Assembly (NCBI GenBank): GCA_020634575.1
Contig: JACKBM010000015.1
Span: 48,380 to 112,379, forward strand
DNA: 64,000 nt
Reading direction: 5' to 3'
Source of the DNA: Ardenticatenales bacterium
GTDB lineage: Bacteria; Chloroflexota; Anaerolineae; Promineifilales; Promineifilaceae
Position numbers and translations under genes: made by a program. Numbering within the stretch: the stretch's first letter is position 1; each line of letters opens with the position of its first letter. The notes below the pieces were generated by a model. That model was not told the DNA's origin, searched no databases, and saw only the letters and a list, made by a program, of their open reading frames with translations. Below, piece by piece: positions 9,173 through 16,847 of this stretch.

Positions 9173-9356
9173 GACATGCTCCCTGGGGACGGCGCTCTGT
9201 GACCCCAAACGCCATTCCGGTTTCTAAATGAATAGGCAATGGTAACAGGAAAGGACCCAATATACAGACAGGTAGCACCGTTTACTTTTAAACTGGCTCA
9301 TCATCCCTTAAAATGGATGCAACGGATCATGATTGTCAACGTAGTAAGAGGTGCAT

Positions 9357-9824
9357 ATGGGTAACAAACCTGAGAAACAAGTCGAGGACAACAACATGGA
9401 GTCAAGAGTTGACACCGTCGTCAATCATGCCGTAGACGTTCAGCGTAAACGGATTGGTTTTCTACAGGAAACCTGGGAACAGGCCCAACTGGTCTGGCGC
9501 CTTTTCAAGGATCGCGAAGTCCCCATTTATCTGAAGGCCCTGCCAATTGGGGCGCTGGTTTACCTGATCTCCCCCCTGGACCTCTTGCCGGATTTCATTT
9601 TCCCGCCCATCGTCGGGCAATTGGATGATTTCACGGCGTTGCTGGCTGCCGGCAAACTGTTCATTGAGCTTTCCCCTAAACATGTCGTGGAAAAACATCT
9701 GGCGGCGATTCGGGGTACAGAATACATCGTGACCAGTGAAGCGGAAGCAAAGGTGATCGAAGGCGAACTGGGTGAACAGATTGTCATTCGCCCCCACGAA
9801 AAGGAAGCGCGCGAGCAGGAGTAG
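9357..9824 (+). CDS. YkvA / DUF1232 family protein
   Basis: 155 residues. The centre carries the DUF1232 signature VPIYLKALPIGALVYLISPL followed by DLLPDFIFPPIVGQLDDFTA. It is usually read as a short hydrophobic hairpin that associates with the membrane. The function of the family is unknown. The N-terminal 50 residues are charged and helical, and the C-terminus is acidic. ATG 9357 was chosen because AGAGG lies five bases upstream; an in-frame GTG two codons earlier is possible. The gene stands alone with its own terminator at 9856-9893. Confidence 0.85.
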   Translation: MGNKPEKQVEDNNMESRVDTVVNHAVDVQRKRIGFLQETWEQAQLVWRLFKDREVPIYLKALPIGALVYLISPLDLLPDFIFPPIVGQLDDFTALLAAGKLFIELSPKHVVEKHLAAIRGTEYIVTSEAEAKVIEGELGEQIVIRPHEKEAREQE

Positions 9825-9855
9825 CCCGGTCAGCGCCGCCCAGATAATAGAAACA

Positions 9856-9893
9856 AAAAAGAGCGCCGGGCCCTTGGCTCAGCGCTCTTTTTG
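9856..9893 (+). terminator. Rho-independent terminator after the YkvA-type gene
   Basis: Stem AAAAAGAGCGC / GCGCTCTTTTT with a 15-base loop, T-rich on the right and A-rich on the left. It could therefore serve both the plus-strand YkvA-type gene and the minus-strand FHA/microprotein operon. Confidence 0.85.
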
Positions 9894-9913: not shown

Positions 9914-10066
9914 CTATACCAGGGAACTGGCCAGACGGCTCATCTCTTCCATCACGGCTGGACCAAGCAGGTACCAGCCCACACTGATGGCCGAACAGCA
10001 GATACAAAGTAAAACAACAACGGCTACGATGATGATGATATTTCGCTGACGATTGTCTTTAGGCAT
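9914..10066 (-). CDS. 50-aa membrane microprotein, copy of FHA-protein tail
   Basis: Reads MPKDNRQRNIIIIVAVVVLL, then CICCSAISVGWYLLGPAVME and EMSRLASSLV. A basic N-terminus precedes one membrane segment with a CICC motif and a short outer tail. The first 32 residues align with the neighbouring 39-aa microprotein and with the C-terminal tail of the FHA protein (RRNVIIAVVAVVALCICCAS). It is the third gene of the FHA operon, 21 bases after the 39-aa gene. No clear ribosome site is visible, but conservation between the copies supports real coding. Function unknown; a partner or competitor of the FHA protein in the membrane is a reasonable inference. Confidence 0.7.
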   Translation of the reverse strand: MPKDNRQRNIIIIVAVVVLLCICCSAISVGWYLLGPAVMEEMSRLASSLV

Positions 10067-10087
10067 GTCTCACATCCCGGATCTGTT

Positions 10088-10207
10088 CTAGAACGAAGCT
10101 GGCGCCAGATAAAAATAAGCGCCCACGCTGACCGCGCAACAGATGCAGAGCGCGACGGCGACACCAACACCAATCAAAATGTTACGGGTACGATTGTCTT
10201 TGGGCAT
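10088..10207 (-). CDS. 39-aa membrane microprotein, copy of FHA-protein tail
   Basis: Reads MPKDNRTRNILIGVGVAVAL then CICCAVSVGAYFYLAPASF. It shares the MPKDNR-RNI start with the 50-aa microprotein. From the Arg-Asn onward it matches the last 30 residues of the FHA protein encoded 25 bases upstream. It is predicted to be a single-pass protein with its N-terminus inside. Three versions of one membrane tail, one fused to a signalling domain and two free, suggest tandem duplication with a purpose in membrane assembly. No database family is known to me. Confidence 0.68.
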   Translation of the reverse strand: MPKDNRTRNILIGVGVAVALCICCAVSVGAYFYLAPASF

Positions 10208-10232
10208 GTTTTAGTCCCCGGATTCGGTACTG

Positions 10233-11297
10233 CTAGAAGCCAACAAAGTAAGCATAAGCGCCAATAGATGACGCACAGCAGATACACAAAGCAACCACCG
10301 CAACCACCGCAATGATGACATTACGCCGGTTGCTGAAGAAGCCGCCACCGCCTTCACTCTTGGCACCACCGCTCTTGCTGATTTCGGCAGCGGCCGGCTC
10401 CGGGTCAAAGGACGGCAATGGCGGCGGCTCACTCTTGGCCATCATTGGCTCTGCCTTGGCCGGTTCGTCAAAGGATGGCAATGGTTCCGGCTCGCCAAAA
10501 GAGGGCAACGGCTCCGGCTCGCCAAACGACGGCAGGGGCTCCGGCTCATCGAACGAGGGCAGCGGATCGGGCTCGTCAAACGAGGGCAGCACTTCTTCGG
10601 CAGCTGCGGCGGGTTTCTCCGCAACCGGCTCGTCAAATGATGGCAAAGCTTCATCCATCGACTCTGAGAAGATCATGGTCGCATCATCAGCAGGCTGGTT
10701 GAACGCCGGCAGCGCGTCTTCAACAGGGGCGGCCACCTCTTCAATCTCGGCGACCGGTTCGTCAAACGAGGGCAGCGGTTCGTCGAATGACGGCAACGGT
10801 TCTGGCTCCTCGTCCTTTTCATCAAAAGCAGTGATGGAAGCTGGCTCAGCGTCAAAGGCGGAGTCAGGTGGGCTTTCCAGCACGCCCGTGTCAACGTCTT
10901 CCTCTTCTTCAGCTTCTTCAGCCATCGCAGCGCCCATACCGGGCAAGGCGCCCATCGGCGCAACCATTGTGGCCATTGGATCAACGCCTTCAATGACCTG
11001 GTAGACCAGTTCCACATTGCTACCCAGCTGAATCAACTGGTTATTTTTCAGTGTGACCGCATTGCCTTCCAGCCGGCTGCCATCGATGAAAGAGCCATTG
11101 GTGGAGCCCATGTCCTGAAGCTGATAACTACCGCCGATCAGGGAGAGGCGGGCATGTTGACGCGAAACTTCGGCATCATTGATCACAATGTCAGAATTGG
11201 GATCACGCCCAATCACCATGGAATCGGAAATGAGCGTGTAGACGTGACCCGGTTTGGGGCCGGTACGTACAATCAGTTGGTAGGAATTATCAGACAC
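10233..11297 (-). CDS. FHA-domain membrane protein with LPSFDEP repeats
   Basis: 354 residues from GTG 11297 (VSDNSYQLIVRTGPKPGHVY), chosen because AGGGG lies before it and the FHA domain starts at once; an upstream ATG at 11375 adds 26 residues that look non-coding. Residues about 1-95 form an FHA phosphothreonine-binding domain: VIGRDPNSDIVIND, VSRQHARL, MGSTNGSFIDG. Residues about 120-310 are acidic and disordered, with about ten copies of a (P/A)LPSFDEP motif and one DDATMIFSES segment that resembles a phospho-Thr ligand. The C-terminus is a single membrane helix ending CICCASSIGAYAYFVGF. It is probably a cytosolic scaffold tethered by its tail and acting with a Ser/Thr kinase. The operon includes two microproteins that repeat the tail. 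Confidence 0.88.
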   Translation of the reverse strand: MSDNSYQLIVRTGPKPGHVYTLISDSMVIGRDPNSDIVINDAEVSRQHARLSLIGGSYQLQDMGSTNGSFIDGSRLEGNAVTLKNNQLIQLGSNVELVYQVIEGVDPMATMVAPMGALPGMGAAMAEEAEEEEDVDTGVLESPPDSAFDAEPASITAFDEKDEEPEPLPSFDEPLPSFDEPVAEIEEVAAPVEDALPAFNQPADDATMIFSESMDEALPSFDEPVAEKPAAAAEEVLPSFDEPDPLPSFDEPEPLPSFGEPEPLPSFGEPEPLPSFDEPAKAEPMMAKSEPPPLPSFDPEPAAAEISKSGGAKSEGGGGFFSNRRNVIIAVVAVVALCICCASSIGAYAYFVGF

Positions 11298-11468: not shown

Positions 11469-13064
11469 TTACCGGCGCAGGAATTGCCGGCGTAGGGCGT
11501 GAGCGTCTTTCATATCGAGGAGGAAAACGGCGGCGAGGTAAATCAGCAAGCCTGCCAGACCGGGCAAACCGACCAGCAGCAGCTTGCTCCAGAGGAGACC
11601 GGCCGGTAACCAGCTCACCAGCAGCTCCCACAGAAAATAAGCCACCGCCCCCATAACCAGCGAGGCCGCCAGCGCCTTGCTCAGCGCCGGCCCAATGCCA
11701 TAACCGCGCAGCCCACCCTGGGCCCGCCCCAGCACCCAGATCATCAACACCGTGTGGACGATATGTTTGACCGTATCAGCGACCATCAGGCACAGGTAGC
11801 TGAGCGGCCCGACCAGCAGCAGCGCCACCACCATGTAAACCGCAACGCTGATAACGCCAATTAAGGCCGGTCGCCAGGTATCCTGCCGGGCATAGGAGGC
11901 AAACACCAGCATCTGATCCACAGCGGCGAAAGGGAGACCGAAAAGGTAAAAGCGCAACACCAGGGCCACCACCGCTGTGTTGTCCGGCGTGAAATTATCC
12001 CATTCAAAGACCAGGGCCACGATGGGGATCGCCAGGGCAAACAAGCCCAGCGTTGCCGGCAAAATGAGCGTTAGAACGAGGCGGATGCCGCTAGCCAACG
12101 TCTTGCGATACGCCTCCCAACTGCCATTGGCCTGTTGGGAAAGCGTCGGCAGCGTGGCGATGGAGAGGGCCGTGACCACCAGCCCTAGGGGAAACTGCAA
12201 CAGGGTTGTGGCAAATTGCATGGAGGCAATCGCTTCATCAGCTTCACCCGCAGCCAGCCGGTAGCTAAAGCCAATGGCCAGTTGATTGACCACCAGCCCG
12301 GCCACGATGGGCGCGTACAGGATCAGGATGCGGCGCAGGGCGGGATGGCGCCAGTCGATGCGGACAAAACGTGCGTCCCGCAGCGCCGGTAGCTGCACCA
12401 CGACCTGCAACCCCGAACCCAGCAGCAAGCCCCACACCAACCCGCTCACGTCCCCGTGCAGCAGCGCCACGACCACGATGGTGCCGTTGAGGATGGCGGC
12501 GGTGAAGGCGGGCAGGGTAAAACGCTTCATGGCGTATAAAACGCCGCTGATCAGACTGGCCAGGCTGAGGAAAAGCACCGCCGGCGCTGCCAGGCGCATC
12601 AGGCTGACAGTTGTTTCCAGCAGAGCGGGGTCGCTGAACTCGTCCGCCCCCAATAACATTGCCAGCGGCTGGGCCAGCAATTCAATCAGGACAACACACA
12701 GCGTCAATACAAAAAAGGCCAGGCTGAGGAAGCTGGTAACCACTTCCCATAGCTCTTTACGTTCAGGATCCTCGGCTCGATTGGCATATTCGGAGAAAAC
12801 GGGGACAAGCGAAGAGTTAACCATCTCCCCACCCACGATGAGCTGGAAGATGCTGTTGGGCACATAAGTGGCGATGGTAAAGGCCCCCAGTAAGCCAGAG
12901 GCGCCAAACAGGCGCGCTTTAACCATCTCGCGAACCAGCCCGAGCAGCCGGCTGGTTACATTGCCCAGCGACAGCAGCAGCGCGGCCCGCAAAATACCTC
13001 TATTCTCGCTGATAGGTGCCGGCTCCGACTCCGCCAACACCGGAGCCTCGCCTGGTTCCGACAT
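11469..13064 (-). CDS. murJ: Lipid II flippase MurJ (MviN family)
   Basis: 531-residue polytopic protein of the MOP exporter superfamily that moves lipid II across the cytoplasmic membrane for peptidoglycan synthesis. The diagnostic N-terminal block is present: LLSLGNVTSRLLGLVREMVK followed by ARLFGASG and AFTIATYVPNSIFQLIVGG. About 14 hydrophobic segments are visible, as usual for the family. The first 23 residues are acidic and variable. The gene starts at ATG 13064, next to a block of palindromic repeats, and ends about 170 bases before the FHA gene on the same strand. Together with RodA and MinCDE further on, it marks this window as rich in cell-wall functions. Confidence 0.93.
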   Translation of the reverse strand: MSEPGEAPVLAESEPAPISENRGILRAALLLSLGNVTSRLLGLVREMVKARLFGASGLLGAFTIATYVPNSIFQLIVGGEMVNSSLVPVFSEYANRAEDPERKELWEVVTSFLSLAFFVLTLCVVLIELLAQPLAMLLGADEFSDPALLETTVSLMRLAAPAVLFLSLASLISGVLYAMKRFTLPAFTAAILNGTIVVVALLHGDVSGLVWGLLLGSGLQVVVQLPALRDARFVRIDWRHPALRRILILYAPIVAGLVVNQLAIGFSYRLAAGEADEAIASMQFATTLLQFPLGLVVTALSIATLPTLSQQANGSWEAYRKTLASGIRLVLTLILPATLGLFALAIPIVALVFEWDNFTPDNTAVVALVLRFYLFGLPFAAVDQMLVFASYARQDTWRPALIGVISVAVYMVVALLLVGPLSYLCLMVADTVKHIVHTVLMIWVLGRAQGGLRGYGIGPALSKALAASLVMGAVAYFLWELLVSWLPAGLLWSKLLLVGLPGLAGLLIYLAAVFLLDMKDAHALRRQFLRR

Positions 13065-13089: not shown

Positions 13090-13345
13090 GGGGGTGGTGC
13101 CATACGGGGAGACTATCAGTACGCTGCGCTTACAGTACGGCCTGCGGCCTTTCAGTGGTCAGCACGTTCGCTACGCTCACTTTTAGTGGTCAGCACGGGC
13201 CGGTGGCCCTTTCGGCAGTTAGTACGGCCTACGGCCTTTCAGTACTCAGACACTGACGGCTGAAAGCGCAGCGTACTGACGGCTGACAGTGAGCGTAGCG
13301 AACGTGCTGAAAGTGCAGCGTACTGAAAACGAGCACAGCGAGTGT
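13090..13345. repeat. Intergenic block of short inverted motifs (CAGTACGCTGCGCTT type)
   Basis: The spacer between murJ and icmF consists of variants of two modules, CAGTACGCTGCGCTTTCAG and CAGCACGTTCGCTACGCTCA. They appear first in one orientation (13120-13250) and then in the other (13255-13340, for example GTGAGCGTAGCGAACGTGCT). The whole block is thus a large imperfect palindrome. A second block of the same type lies at 49390-49552. No open frame of interest. It is probably a dispersed miniature repeat. Confidence 0.8.
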
Positions 13346-13357
13346 ACTGACTGCTGC

Positions 13358-13363
13358 TATAAT
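13358..13363 (+). promoter_or_regulatory. Candidate -10 box of icmF
   Basis: TATAAT, 32 bases before the icmF ATG at 13396, just right of the palindromic repeat block. No clear -35 consensus lies 17 bases upstream. Confidence 0.45.
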
Positions 13364-13395: not shown

Positions 13396-16300
13396 ATGAC
13401 CAACCCTTCTGTCTACCAACCGAAAAATAAAATCCGCATTGTGACGGCGGCTTCTTTGTTTGATGGCCATGATGCGGCCATTAACATCATGCGGCGCATT
13501 CTGCAGGCGTCGGGGGCGGAGGTGATCCATTTGGGGCATGACCGCTCGGTCCAGGAGATTGTCGATACGGCCATCCAGGAAGATGCCCAGGCGATTGCCG
13601 TGACCTCTTATCAGGGTGGCCACATGGAGTTCTTCCAGTACATGTATGATCTGCTGGAAGAGAAAGGTTGCGGCCACATCCGCATCTTTGGCGGCGGGGC
13701 GGCACCATCCTGCCGGAGGAGCAGCAAGCGCTGCATGATTATGGCATCGCCCGCATCTACTCGCCGGATGATGGCCGGGCCATGGGGCTGCAGGGGATGA
13801 TCAATGATCTGCTGGCGAAGGCGGATTTCCCGACGGGCCAACTCAACGCCGATCGCTGGCTGCAGGCGATCGACGAGGTGTATCCGCCGTTGAGCGCACC
13901 GGCCGGTTCCCCCACCGAAGTCGCCGTCAGCCACGAGATCAAGGGACGGATCGAAGCCCGCGCCCTCGGCCGGCTCATCTCCGCTGTAGAAAATGAGCCG
14001 GACCTGGTCCAACCCATCATGGACGAGGTCCACCGGCGTATGGCCGGCCTCGCCCTGCCCCCCATCTTAGGTATCACCGGCACCGGCGGGGCGGGTAAAT
14101 CGTCGCTGGTGGACGAAATCGTGCGCCGCTTCCTGCTGGATTTTCCCGAGCACCAGATCGCCATCATCTCCATCGACCCCTCCAAACGGCGGACCGGCGG
14201 CGCCCTGCTCGGCGACCGGATCCGTATGAACGCGGTCTACAACGAGCGCGTCTACATGCGCTCACTGGCCACCCGCCAGGCCAACCTGGCCCTCTCGCGC
14301 CATCTGCCTGAGGTGCTCAACGTCCTCAAAGTGGCCCAGTTTGACCTTGTCATCCTGGAAACCTCCGGCATCGGCCAATCTGACACGGAGATCATCGATT
14401 TTTCCGACGTGGCCCTCTATGTGATGACGCCGGAATATGGTGCGGCCTCCCAGCTCGAGAAAATCGACATGCTGGATTATGCCGACGTCATCGCCATCAA
14501 CAAATTTGATAAACGGGGCGGCCCCGATGCCGTGCGCGACGTCAAAAAGCAGTATCGGCGCAATCATCAATTGTGGGACGCCGCCGAAGAAACATTGCCC
14601 ATCGTCGGCACCATCGCTTCCCAGTTCAACGACCCCGGCACCAATCAGCTTTACCGGGTGCTCATGGAAACGATCAGCCCCAAGACCGGCGCCGACCTAA
14701 CGCCGAGCCTGGACCTTGCTGAGGGCGAATCAGCTAAAGTCCACATCATCCCGCCCCGGCGGGTCCGCTACCTGGCCGAAATTGCAGATACCATCCGCGG
14801 CTACAACCGCTGGACGGACGAGCAGGCGCAGCTGGCCAACCAGCTCTACAGCATCCGCCAGACAGAAGCGGCTCTGAGCGATGCCGGGGACGCGCCGGCT
14901 GAGGTGGCGCTGACACTTGCGGGGCTATACGAAGGGCTAGCGCTGGCGCTGGACCGTCAAAACCAGAAGTTGCTGGACGATTGGGCTGAAAAAGCCGCCA
15001 ACTATGAAGCCGAGATGTACACCTACACGGTACGCGGTCGGGAAATCCGCATCCCCACCCGGGTTAAAACGTTGTCCGGCAACGAAATTCGCCGGGTCAG
15101 CCTGCCGAAATATTCTGCCTGGGGGGATATTCTGAAGTGGAATTTGCAGGAGAATGTGCCGGGTGAATTCCCTTTACAGCCGGCGTCTTCCCCTTCAAAC
15201 GGCAGAATGAGGACCCGACACGTATGTTTGCCGGCGAAGGCGGCCCGGAACGGACCAACAAGCGCTTCCATTACGTCTCCCTGGGCATGCCGGCGCGGCG
15301 CCTGTCGACTGCGTTTGATTCGGTGACGTTGTACGGGCAGGACCCGGATTACCGGCCGGATATCTACGGCAAAGTCGGCAACTCCGGCGTCTCCGTGCCC
15401 ACCCTGGACGACGCCAAGAAGCTCTACAGCGGCTTCGACCTGTGCGACCCGGCCACCTCGGTCTCCATGACCATCAACGGCCCGGCGGCGACCATCCTCG
15501 CCTTCTTCCTCAACGCCGCCATTGACCAACAATGTGAAAAATACATTCTCGAGCACGGTCTTGAGGATGAGGTTGAGGCCCGGTTGCGCGCCAAATACGA
15601 CAACCGCGGTCTGGAGCGCCCCCGCTACAACGCTGAGTTGCCCGAAGGCAACGACGGCCTGGGATTGATGCTGCTGGGCGTCACCGGCGACGAAATCCTG
15701 CCGGCTGACGTCTATGCGCCGATCAAGGCGGCGACGTTGCGCCAGGTGCGCGGCACCGTCCAGGCGGACATCCTGAAGGAAGACCAGGCCCAGAACACCT
15801 GCATCTTCTCGACCGAGTTTTCGCTGCGGCTGATGGGCGACGTCCAGCAATATTTCATCGACCACGATGTGCGCAACTTCTACTCCGTCTCCATCTCCGG
15901 CTACCACATGGCCGAGGCCGGCGCTAACCCGATCACGCAGTTGGCCTTCACCCTGGCCAACGGTTTCACCTTCCTTGAGTATTACGCGGCGCGGGGATGG
16001 ACATCGACGACTTTGCGCCGAACTTTTCCTACTTCTTCTCGAATGGGATTGATCCGGAGTATGCGGTCATCGGCCGGGTGGCGCGGCGCATTTGGGCCAA
16101 AGCGTTGAAGCTGAAATATGGGGCTGGCGAGCGGGCGCAGAAGCTGAAATATCACATTCAGACATCCGGCCGGTCGCTCCACGCCCAGGAAATCGGCTTC
16201 AACGATATCCGCACAACCTTGCAGGCGCTCTACGCCATCTACGACAACTGCAACTCCCTGCACACCAACGCCTACGACGAGGCGATCACCACCCCCACCG

Positions 16301-16847
16301 AGGAATCGGTACGCCGGGCGATGGCGATCCAGCTCATCATCAACCGGGAGCTGGGGCTGGCCAAAACGAAAACCCGCTGCAAGGCTCCTTTGTCATCGAG
16401 GAATTGACGGACCTGGTCGAAGAGGCGGTGCTCATCGAGTTTGACCGCCTCACTGAACGAGGCGGCGTCCTGGGGGCGATGGAGACGATGTACCAGCGCG
16501 GCAAAATCCAGGAAGAGTCGCTCCACTATGAGCACCTGAAGCACAGCGGCGAGCTGCCGATTATCGGCGTCAACACCTTTTTGTCGGACGAGGGCTCGCC
16601 CACGGTAGTGCCGGGCGAAGTGATTCGGGCCACGCCTGAGGAGAAAGCGTATCAGATCGAGCGGCTACAGGCGCTGCAGGCGCACCGGCCGGACGAAGCC
16701 GCCGCGGCCCTGGCCCGACTACAGACAGTCGCCATGCAACAGGGCAACCTGTTCGAGGCGCTGATGGCCGCGGTTAAATTCTGCTCTTTGGGCCAGATCA
16801 CCCGCGCCCTCTTCCAGGTCGGCGGCCAGTATCGCCGCAGCATGTAA
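13396..16847 (+). CDS. icmF: Fused isobutyryl-CoA mutase IcmF, interrupted by four frameshifts
   Basis: One gene of about 1,150 codons spread over several frames. Domains in order are: a B12-binding domain ([35 protein letters not shown]); a G-protein chaperone domain ([17 protein letters not shown]alker [20 protein letters not shown]); and the mutase barrel ([39 protein letters not shown]). This is the IcmF order, so it should isomerise isobutyryl- and butyryl-CoA, linking branched-chain or fatty acid use to central metabolism. Reading frame is lost at about 13696 (GGGG), 15173 (TTT), 15993 (GGGG) and 16363 (AAAA). At each site one extra base of the same kind restores a perfect family sequence. 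That pattern points to sequencing error, although true decay is possible. Substrate specificity cannot be read by eye. Confidence 0.9.

What the first reader, a model, noticed from the sequence alone, without database searches (positions are those of the whole stretch)
9914..11297. FHA scaffold and two free microproteins sharing one CICC membrane tail
Two small genes, missed by length cut-offs, encode MPKDNR-RNI...CICC proteins of 39 and 50 aa. They are homologous to the last 30 residues of the adjacent FHA protein. A tandem set of one fused and two free copies suggests that the tail is a membrane assembly module, for example a hetero-oligomer whose composition is tuned, or a decoy that controls FHA protein placement. 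I know of no described system like this.
Basis: partly seen in the sequence, partly recalled or inferred. Interest (0 to 1): 0.72.

Follow-up and report, generated by a model that had tools for sequence, protein, structure and literature searches.

The report
Cysteine-cluster membrane microproteins beside FHA protein
Two real, tiny membrane proteins lie behind an FHA signalling protein and share its cysteine-rich membrane anchor, which belongs to a wide and little-studied family of free and fused anchors in Anaerolineae bacteria.

Summary
On the minus strand an FHA protein (10233-11297) is followed by 39- and 50-aa ORFs that share its last ~26 residues. No shuffle of 5000 per pair reaches the similarity. 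Synonymous sites are far more diverged than amino-acid sites (39/50 aa: pS 1.00, pN 0.19), so the ORFs are old, coding and under purifying selection.

The idea that such microproteins go with the FHA protein mostly fails: among 72 tail-anchored FHA proteins only the window's has them. The same helix (RN, hydrophobic run, Cys cluster) is a wider module of Anaerolineae. It occurs as free microproteins, mostly behind DUF4126 (22 of 31 free ORFs examined). It is the C-terminal anchor of proteins, nearly all FHA, encoded directly behind MurJ, the lipid II flippase (30 of 38 genomes). Other proteins carry it too. Eight other genomes encode a free copy next to a tail-anchored, non-FHA copy.

Best reading: a self-associating membrane anchor; here free copies probably co-assemble with the FHA tail. 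This is inferred, not shown: only 2 of 38 genomes with the fused form also show a short-frame match. My limited searches found no description.

The parts
10233..11297 (-). FHA protein, 354 aa, GTG start: FHA domain (res. ~5-100), long low-confidence acidic/Pro linker, C-terminal membrane helix
   Evidence: PF00498 E 1.5e-19; model: beta domain res. 4-103, block pLDDT 86-97 up to res. 100, linker mostly under 60, helix 323-353 with block pLDDT 70-93
10236..10331 (-). C-terminal Cys-cluster membrane tail of the FHA protein (NRRN...CICC...)
   Evidence: R325, N326, I329, L337, C341 invariant in the alignment of 38 FHA homologues that I chose from 112
10460..10802 (-). repeat-bearing part of the linker of the FHA protein (EPLPSFDEP-like units)
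   Evidence: 27-nt repeat x4.9 at 10460-10590 and 21-nt repeat x2.3 at 10755-10802
10088..10207 (-). 39-aa microprotein, single membrane helix with CICC
9914..10066 (-). 50-aa microprotein, single membrane helix with CICC and a C-terminal helical extension
   Evidence: one helix 5-49 in the model, mean pLDDT 78, last 20 residues 68
9855..9893 (.). hairpin with T-runs on both strands, likely terminator shared with the convergent DUF1232 gene
   Evidence: read from the sequence; part of it listed at 9875-9859
11469..13064 (-). MurJ (lipid II flippase), 5' neighbour of the FHA gene; this gene order is conserved in the order
   Evidence: PF03023 E 2.2e-75; module directly 3' of MurJ in 30 of 38 genomes, FHA confirmed in 29 of these 30
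9351..9824 (+). convergent DUF1232 gene, not part of the unit
   Evidence: PF06803 E 6.4e-10

Best explanation
Shown: the two ORFs are genuine coding microproteins of a class-wide family of single-pass membrane helices with a cysteine cluster and an N-in charge pattern, and the FHA protein ends in the same helix. Inferred: the three genes (FHA, 39 aa, 50 aa) form one transcription unit behind MurJ. The shared helix is a self-associating anchor, so free helices and FHA tails assemble together in the membrane. The free copies would set the spacing or valency of FHA heads, which read phospho-threonine marks near the peptidoglycan machinery, as mycobacterial FhaA does around MurJ. In this lineage the free copies are an optional addition, not an obligate subunit.
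For: Coding and purifying selection; homology above shuffles; G-rich start sites, 25- and 21-nt gaps, terminator-like hairpin. The Cys variant C-[ILVFM]-CC is rare elsewhere: it occurs in 5 of 91 FHA tails, 4 of them the window protein and its three nearest relatives (P0001-P0004), and in 5 of 121 microproteins (the 120 listed plus the 39-aa one), all of this lineage. So tail and free copies share the change. N-in charge pattern: K+R before the helix exceeds that after it in 118 of 121 microproteins and 82 of 82 FHA tails. Free copy beside a tail-anchored copy in 8 other genomes and two free copies in tandem in two more. MurJ directly 5' of the fused form in 30 of 38 genomes. FhaA-MurJ-CwlM in mycobacteria (PMC6180346, PMC11898655, passages).
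Against: Beside FHA only 1 of 72. Of 38 genomes in the order with the module in a frame of 150 aa or more, only two (G001, G047) also show a match in a frame of 95 aa or fewer (hand count; G047's is weak, E 3.5e-4), so FHA tails do without free partners. Free copies occur without FHA nearby: no FHA match in 36 of the 37 stretches L166-L202, the exception being the FHA locus L186. No physical interaction was tested; only single chains were modelled. The MurJ in the window has no extra intracellular domain such as the mycobacterial partner has (only PF03023).
Confidence: 0.42

Rival explanations
1. The microproteins have their own membrane function, for example as small partners of MurJ or another envelope protein. 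They share only an evolutionary origin with the FHA tail and do not bind it.
For: Free copies live mainly behind DUF4126 without FHA (22 of 31 free ORFs have DUF4126 as same-strand 5' neighbour). The 50-aa protein aligns best to other free copies. FHA tails occur without free copies in most genomes.
Against: Shared CICC variant with the adjacent FHA tail; tight gene spacing; free-plus-fused neighbours recur with a non-FHA protein.
Confidence: 0.36
2. Decoy: free helices compete with the FHA tail for a membrane partner or insertion site and so limit FHA placement.
For: Same helix in free and fused form in one likely transcript.
Against: No partner is known and there is no sign that the free copies are regulated apart from the FHA gene; beside FHA in one lineage only.
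Confidence: 0.1
3. A stereotyped single-pass anchor of Anaerolineae that recurs by convergence; the likeness of the copies is mostly composition.
For: 45 of 747 membrane-like segments in ORFs of 180 aa or more carry a Cys cluster (the loci were mostly fetched for the module, so this is inflated). Other Cys-rich tails (GCGC and similar) end FHA proteins elsewhere.
Against: 0 of 5000 shuffles for each pair; MPKDNR start shared by both free copies, 18 of 24 residues identical at saturated synonymous sites.
Confidence: 0.08
4. Decaying fragments of a duplicated FHA gene.
For: Adjacent, same strand, homologous to the tail only.
Against: pS much above pN in all three pairs; conserved 50-aa length and start in three relatives.
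Confidence: 0.02

Closest known systems
CYSTM (cysteine-rich transmembrane module) small tail-anchored proteins of eukaryotes
   Same: Small proteins with a C-terminal membrane helix holding 3-4 consecutive Cys and then an acidic residue (as described in PMC10217909, passages); short proteins, with tandem gene clusters in Arabidopsis (PMC8049917, passages). Here 114 of 121 microproteins have GD after the Cys cluster.
   Different: Bacterial; 3 Cys in each window copy and a cluster of up to 4 in the family, against 5-6 in a CYSTM helix; no CYSTM profile match among 26 members at E <= 10, though HMMER's filters limit that. The 39-aa copy and the FHA tail have no acidic residue after the helix; the 50-aa copy has EE further on.
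Mycobacterial FhaA / MurJ (MviN) / CwlM / CwsA
   Same: An FHA protein tied to the lipid II flippase MurJ; here the tail-anchored gene follows MurJ in 30 of 38 genomes.
   Different: FhaA binds an intracellular pseudokinase region of MurJ (PMC6180346, passages); the window MurJ (531 aa) matches PF03023 only. Here the FHA domain is N-terminal on a tail-anchored chain. Binding not testable here.
SLMAP, eukaryotic tail-anchored FHA proteins
   Same: FHA domain plus C-terminal membrane anchor (search listing and starts of abstracts only).
   Different: Eukaryotic; no free copies of the anchor mentioned in what I saw; homology not tested.
Pfam PF27818 (precomputed label on P0155, P0156, P0222)
   Same: Three of the 120 listed free microproteins carry it, so part of the free family is apparently catalogued.
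   Different: No match to it in the local Pfam copy for these three; name unknown; no paper with that accession in the library. The window's P0113 does not carry it.

Membership tests
FHA domain protein (PF00498) | FHA profile over the curated cut-off | tested here: met
   70.7 bits against 20.7
FHA domain protein (PF00498) | conserved phosphopeptide-binding residues (GR, S, H, NG; motif recalled) | tested here: met
   G30, R31, S45, R46, H48, N67, G68 invariant in 38 homologues; binding itself not tested
CYSTM | match to the CYSTM profile | tested here: not met
   not among the families matched by any of 26 members at E <= 10, nor by the window's three proteins at E <= 0.1
CYSTM | 5-6 Cys in the helix, 3-4 of them consecutive, then an acidic residue | tested here: not met
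   window copies have CICC, 3 Cys each. In the family CCCC in 114, CCC in 2, CICC in 5 of 121 (Cys outside the cluster not counted); GD follows in 114 of 121 but not in the window copies
Mycobacterial-type FhaA-MurJ module | MurJ with an intracellular pseudokinase region | tested here: not met
   531-aa MurJ with PF03023 only
Mycobacterial-type FhaA-MurJ module | FHA protein binds phosphorylated MurJ or CwlM | not testable with these tools
   -
Bacterial lipoprotein | lipobox [LVI][ASTVI][GAS]C (motif recalled) | tested here: not met
   0 of 121 microproteins, nor the window FHA tail
NF040945 CCC motif membrane protein | score over the curated cut-off (65 bits) | tested here: not met
   no match for the window copies; the N-terminally anchored L193 protein scores 17.3 bits
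Anaerolineae Cys-cluster microprotein family (described here) | basic N-terminal side, RN-like turn, hydrophobic run, Cys cluster, N-in charge pattern, 39-95 aa | tested here: met
Anaerolineae Cys-cluster microprotein family (described here) | gene directly behind DUF4126 | tested here: not met
   the window copies lie behind FHA; no whole genome is held to look elsewhere in it

The most novel reading that the evidence does not exclude
A class-wide bacterial plug-in: one cysteine-cluster membrane helix that self-associates, made free as microproteins and fused to different cytoplasmic heads (FHA, acidic Pro-rich chains). The ratio of free to fused helix would set how many heads sit in a membrane patch, a tunable membrane scaffold that here couples Ser/Thr phosphorylation to the MurJ site.
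Probability: 0.25. Interest if true: 0.78.

Novelty: new variant of a known kind. Interest (0 to 1): 0.52.

Why it matters
It points to a large, almost unnamed family of tiny membrane proteins in Anaerolineae, with a conserved gene neighbour (DUF4126) and recurrent free-plus-fused gene pairs. If the helices co-assemble, bacteria would have a general way to tune membrane signalling assemblies with microproteins, and a new link between FHA signalling and lipid II flipping. It also gives a bacterial counterpart, by design if not by descent, to the poorly understood CYSTM proteins.

Tried and rejected
Rejected: lipoproteins (0 of 121 with a lipobox); defence system (no PADLOC match at E <= 0.01 for FHA, the two microproteins or MurJ); decayed FHA fragments; recent duplication (synonymous sites saturated between the two free copies); known family (no NCBIfam match at E <= 0.01 for the window microproteins and three relatives; only sub-threshold Pfam noise); phage origin (viral-contig scan: 16 pattern matches, none confirmed as a relative); solved homologue of the microprotein (only noise at E 0.52).

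Led nowhere: equal contig lengths as a sign of linkage. P0003 (FHA) and P0115 (50 aa) both report a 1,214-base contig, but P0116 and L011 both report 8,392 bases and the genome of L011 (G007) has no strong microprotein match (best E 0.005, its FHA tail), so equal lengths prove nothing. The first motif scan missed the 39-aa ORF because its pattern was too strict; one search used hydrophobicity instead. UvrC and DUF402 beside the free copies look like plain neighbours. No whole genome is held for the window, so whether it also has a DUF4126-linked copy is unknown.

Papers: searches are search listings. Passages were seen of PMC6180346, PMC8049917, PMC11898655 and PMC10217909. The original CYSTM paper is not held. 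'No description found' rests only; searches had 122 and 828 papers with enough of the terms, of which 15 and 8 were listed, so it is a weak absence.

Full report
WHAT IS THERE. On the minus strand the order is MurJ (11469-13064), FHA protein (10233-11297, GTG start), 39-aa ORF (10088-10207), 50-aa ORF (9914-10066), then a hairpin with T-runs on both sides near 9855-9893 and a convergent DUF1232 gene. Gaps are 25 and 21 nt and every start has a G-rich Shine-Dalgarno-like stretch. The FHA protein has an FHA domain (PF00498, E 1.5e-19), a long linker with EPLPSFDEP-like repeats and one C-terminal helix (res. 323-353). The nearest solved FHA chains by sequence are GarA/OdhI. The 50-aa protein is modelled as one helix, residues 5-49.

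REAL AND CODING. Pair scores exceed all 5000 segment-wise shuffles for each of the three pairs. Between the 39- and 50-aa genes pS is 1.00 and pN 0.19 over 24 codons; 39 aa against FHA tail 0.77/0.27 over 26 codons; 50 aa against tail 0.65/0.23 over 17 codons. For 39 against 50 aa, identity is 18 of 24 in frame and 6 and 7 of 23 in the other frames; for 39 aa against tail 17 of 26 and 6 and 7 of 25. These are short stretches, so the numbers are rough, but the direction is the same in all three. The copies are old and kept at the protein level. The 50-aa protein has three relatives of the same length, 72-86% identical, with the first 24 residues unchanged. No orthologue of the 39-aa protein was seen: it is too short to search alone and only 120 of 712 matches were listed.

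THE FHA TAIL. Of 112 FHA homologues found, 91 have a Cys cluster of some kind in a hydrophobic stretch of the last 80 residues by my pattern (53 CCCC, 20 CCC, the rest variants). The order of G001 holds 56 genomes, not named by the tool; locus titles speak of Chloroflexota, Anaerolineae and Ardenticatenaceae, and one FHA homologue is named Candidatus Promineifilaceae. That the window belongs to or near this order rests on protein likeness only: 54-62% MurJ identity for most genomes, a mutase frame at up to 70%. In this order 39 of 56 genomes have the module at E <= 0.001, 38 of them in frames of 150 aa or more. In 30 of those 38 it lies directly 3' of MurJ on the same strand; in the other 8 the best MurJ match is on another contig (coordinates copied). 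Of the 30, 28 frames match my FHA profile and carry a Cys pair or cluster in the last 75 residues; G046 matches FHA but has one Cys there; G044 shows no FHA match. Of the other 8, 7 pass the same test; G003's frame is cut off. So MurJ then FHA-tail is a conserved gene pair.

ARE FREE COPIES TIED TO FHA? Mostly not. From 154 FHA-bearing frames in the loci then fetched I kept 72 distinct ones with a hydrophobic C-terminal stretch, dropping the rest (no such stretch, or the same tail twice). Up to 700 nt downstream was scanned for ATG-start ORFs with a membrane-like stretch. Only the window has such microproteins; two others have unrelated longer hydrophobic ORFs; four had under 500 nt of DNA. 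In one search only G001 and G047 of the 38 also have a match in a frame of 95 aa or fewer (G047 weak), and G049 has a free copy without a long-frame match.

WHERE FREE COPIES LIVE. A profile of free and fused copies matched 712 proteins at E <= 0.1 among the 7984 candidates scored, 120 listed. Of 396 genomes sampled from the class, 114 have a match at E <= 1e-5. By hand count 46 of the listed matches, in 44 genomes, lie in stop-to-stop frames of 95 aa or fewer; some free copies sit in longer frames (G144, G337), so this is a lower bound, and not every short frame was read. I fetched 40 stretches of my own choosing, some for fused or weak hits, and found 31 free ORFs in them. DUF4126 is the same-strand 5' neighbour of 22 and the 3' neighbour of one more; a DUF2085 gene often precedes it (cluster representatives checked with Pfam). 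In the order of G001 itself DUF4126 is in 47 of 56 genomes, but of the 28 loci with a recognisable frame, out of 30 fetched, only G001's has the microprotein. So free and fused forms are largely spread over different lineages.

FREE PLUS FUSED ELSEWHERE. In eight genomes (loci L166-L172 and L174) a free copy of 71-74 aa is followed on the same strand by a tail-anchored protein whose acidic, Pro-rich N-terminal part is not FHA and whose last helix is the same kind of module (no FHA match in these stretches). Two genomes have two free copies in tandem (L173, L175). Behind the PGK gene of six further loci, with GAPDH before it and TPI after it (in three of them with a protein-kinase gene before TPI), the module is an N-terminal anchor of an otherwise unnamed protein (names from representatives). 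This recurrence is the best support for a role in assembly; it also shows that the helix can serve as a plain anchor.

CONCERTED CHANGE. The Cys cluster with a hydrophobic second residue (CICC, CLCC) occurs in 5 of 91 FHA tails, four of them the window protein and its three nearest relatives, and in 5 of 121 microproteins, all of this lineage (121 is the 120 listed plus the 39-aa protein). The best-scoring microprotein for the window's FHA tail is its own 39-aa neighbour (98; next 92), whereas the 50-aa protein scores best with other free copies. This fits either origin within the lineage or joint selection; I cannot separate the two.

TOPOLOGY. K+R before the helix exceeds that after it in 118 of 121 microproteins and 82 of 82 FHA tails that fit the pattern, so N-in, C-out, as an FHA domain in the cytoplasm requires. 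No lipobox in any of 121.

MECHANISM. Shown: coding, homology, charge pattern, gene order. Inferred: one transcript; helix self-association; co-assembly of free helices with the FHA tail; FHA heads reading phospho-threonine near MurJ. The MurJ link is strengthened by mycobacteria, where FhaA binds phosphorylated MurJ and phosphorylated CwlM (PMC6180346, PMC11898655; passages), but the domain FhaA binds in MurJ is absent here.

NOVELTY. CYSTM proteins of eukaryotes are the closest in design; membership fails. The label PF27818 on three relatives shows that part of the free family has been catalogued under a name I could not see. I found no paper on it, which is a weak absence.

Noticed in passing
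window 13396-16847 (+): The fused methylmalonyl-CoA mutase gene (B12-binding, MeaB and mutase parts) is split over several overlapping frames, while 11 of the 13 genomes matched have one frame of about 1158-1181 aa. Assembly indels or decay; a caution on base quality.
   Followed up: partly
window 13100-13360: Intergenic block of diverged, partly palindromic repeats (CAGTACG..., CAGCACG...) between MurJ and the mutase gene, seen by eye.
   Followed up: no
L179, L183, L193, L200, L201, L202: Behind PGK and before TPI (with a protein-kinase gene between in L200-L202) sits an undescribed protein with the Cys-cluster helix at its N-terminus and a further domain after it.
   Followed up: partly
L121:9281-11278: A dynamin-like GTPase gene (PF00350) runs convergent to the free microprotein in G049.
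   Followed up: no
L173:6082-6494 and L175:5841-6353: Two different free Cys-cluster microproteins in tandem behind DUF4126.
   Followed up: partly
L012, L018, L025, L046, L048 and others: Some other FHA proteins end in a different Cys-rich helix (GCGC... or CxC types), so Cys-rich FHA tails are wider than this module.
   Followed up: no
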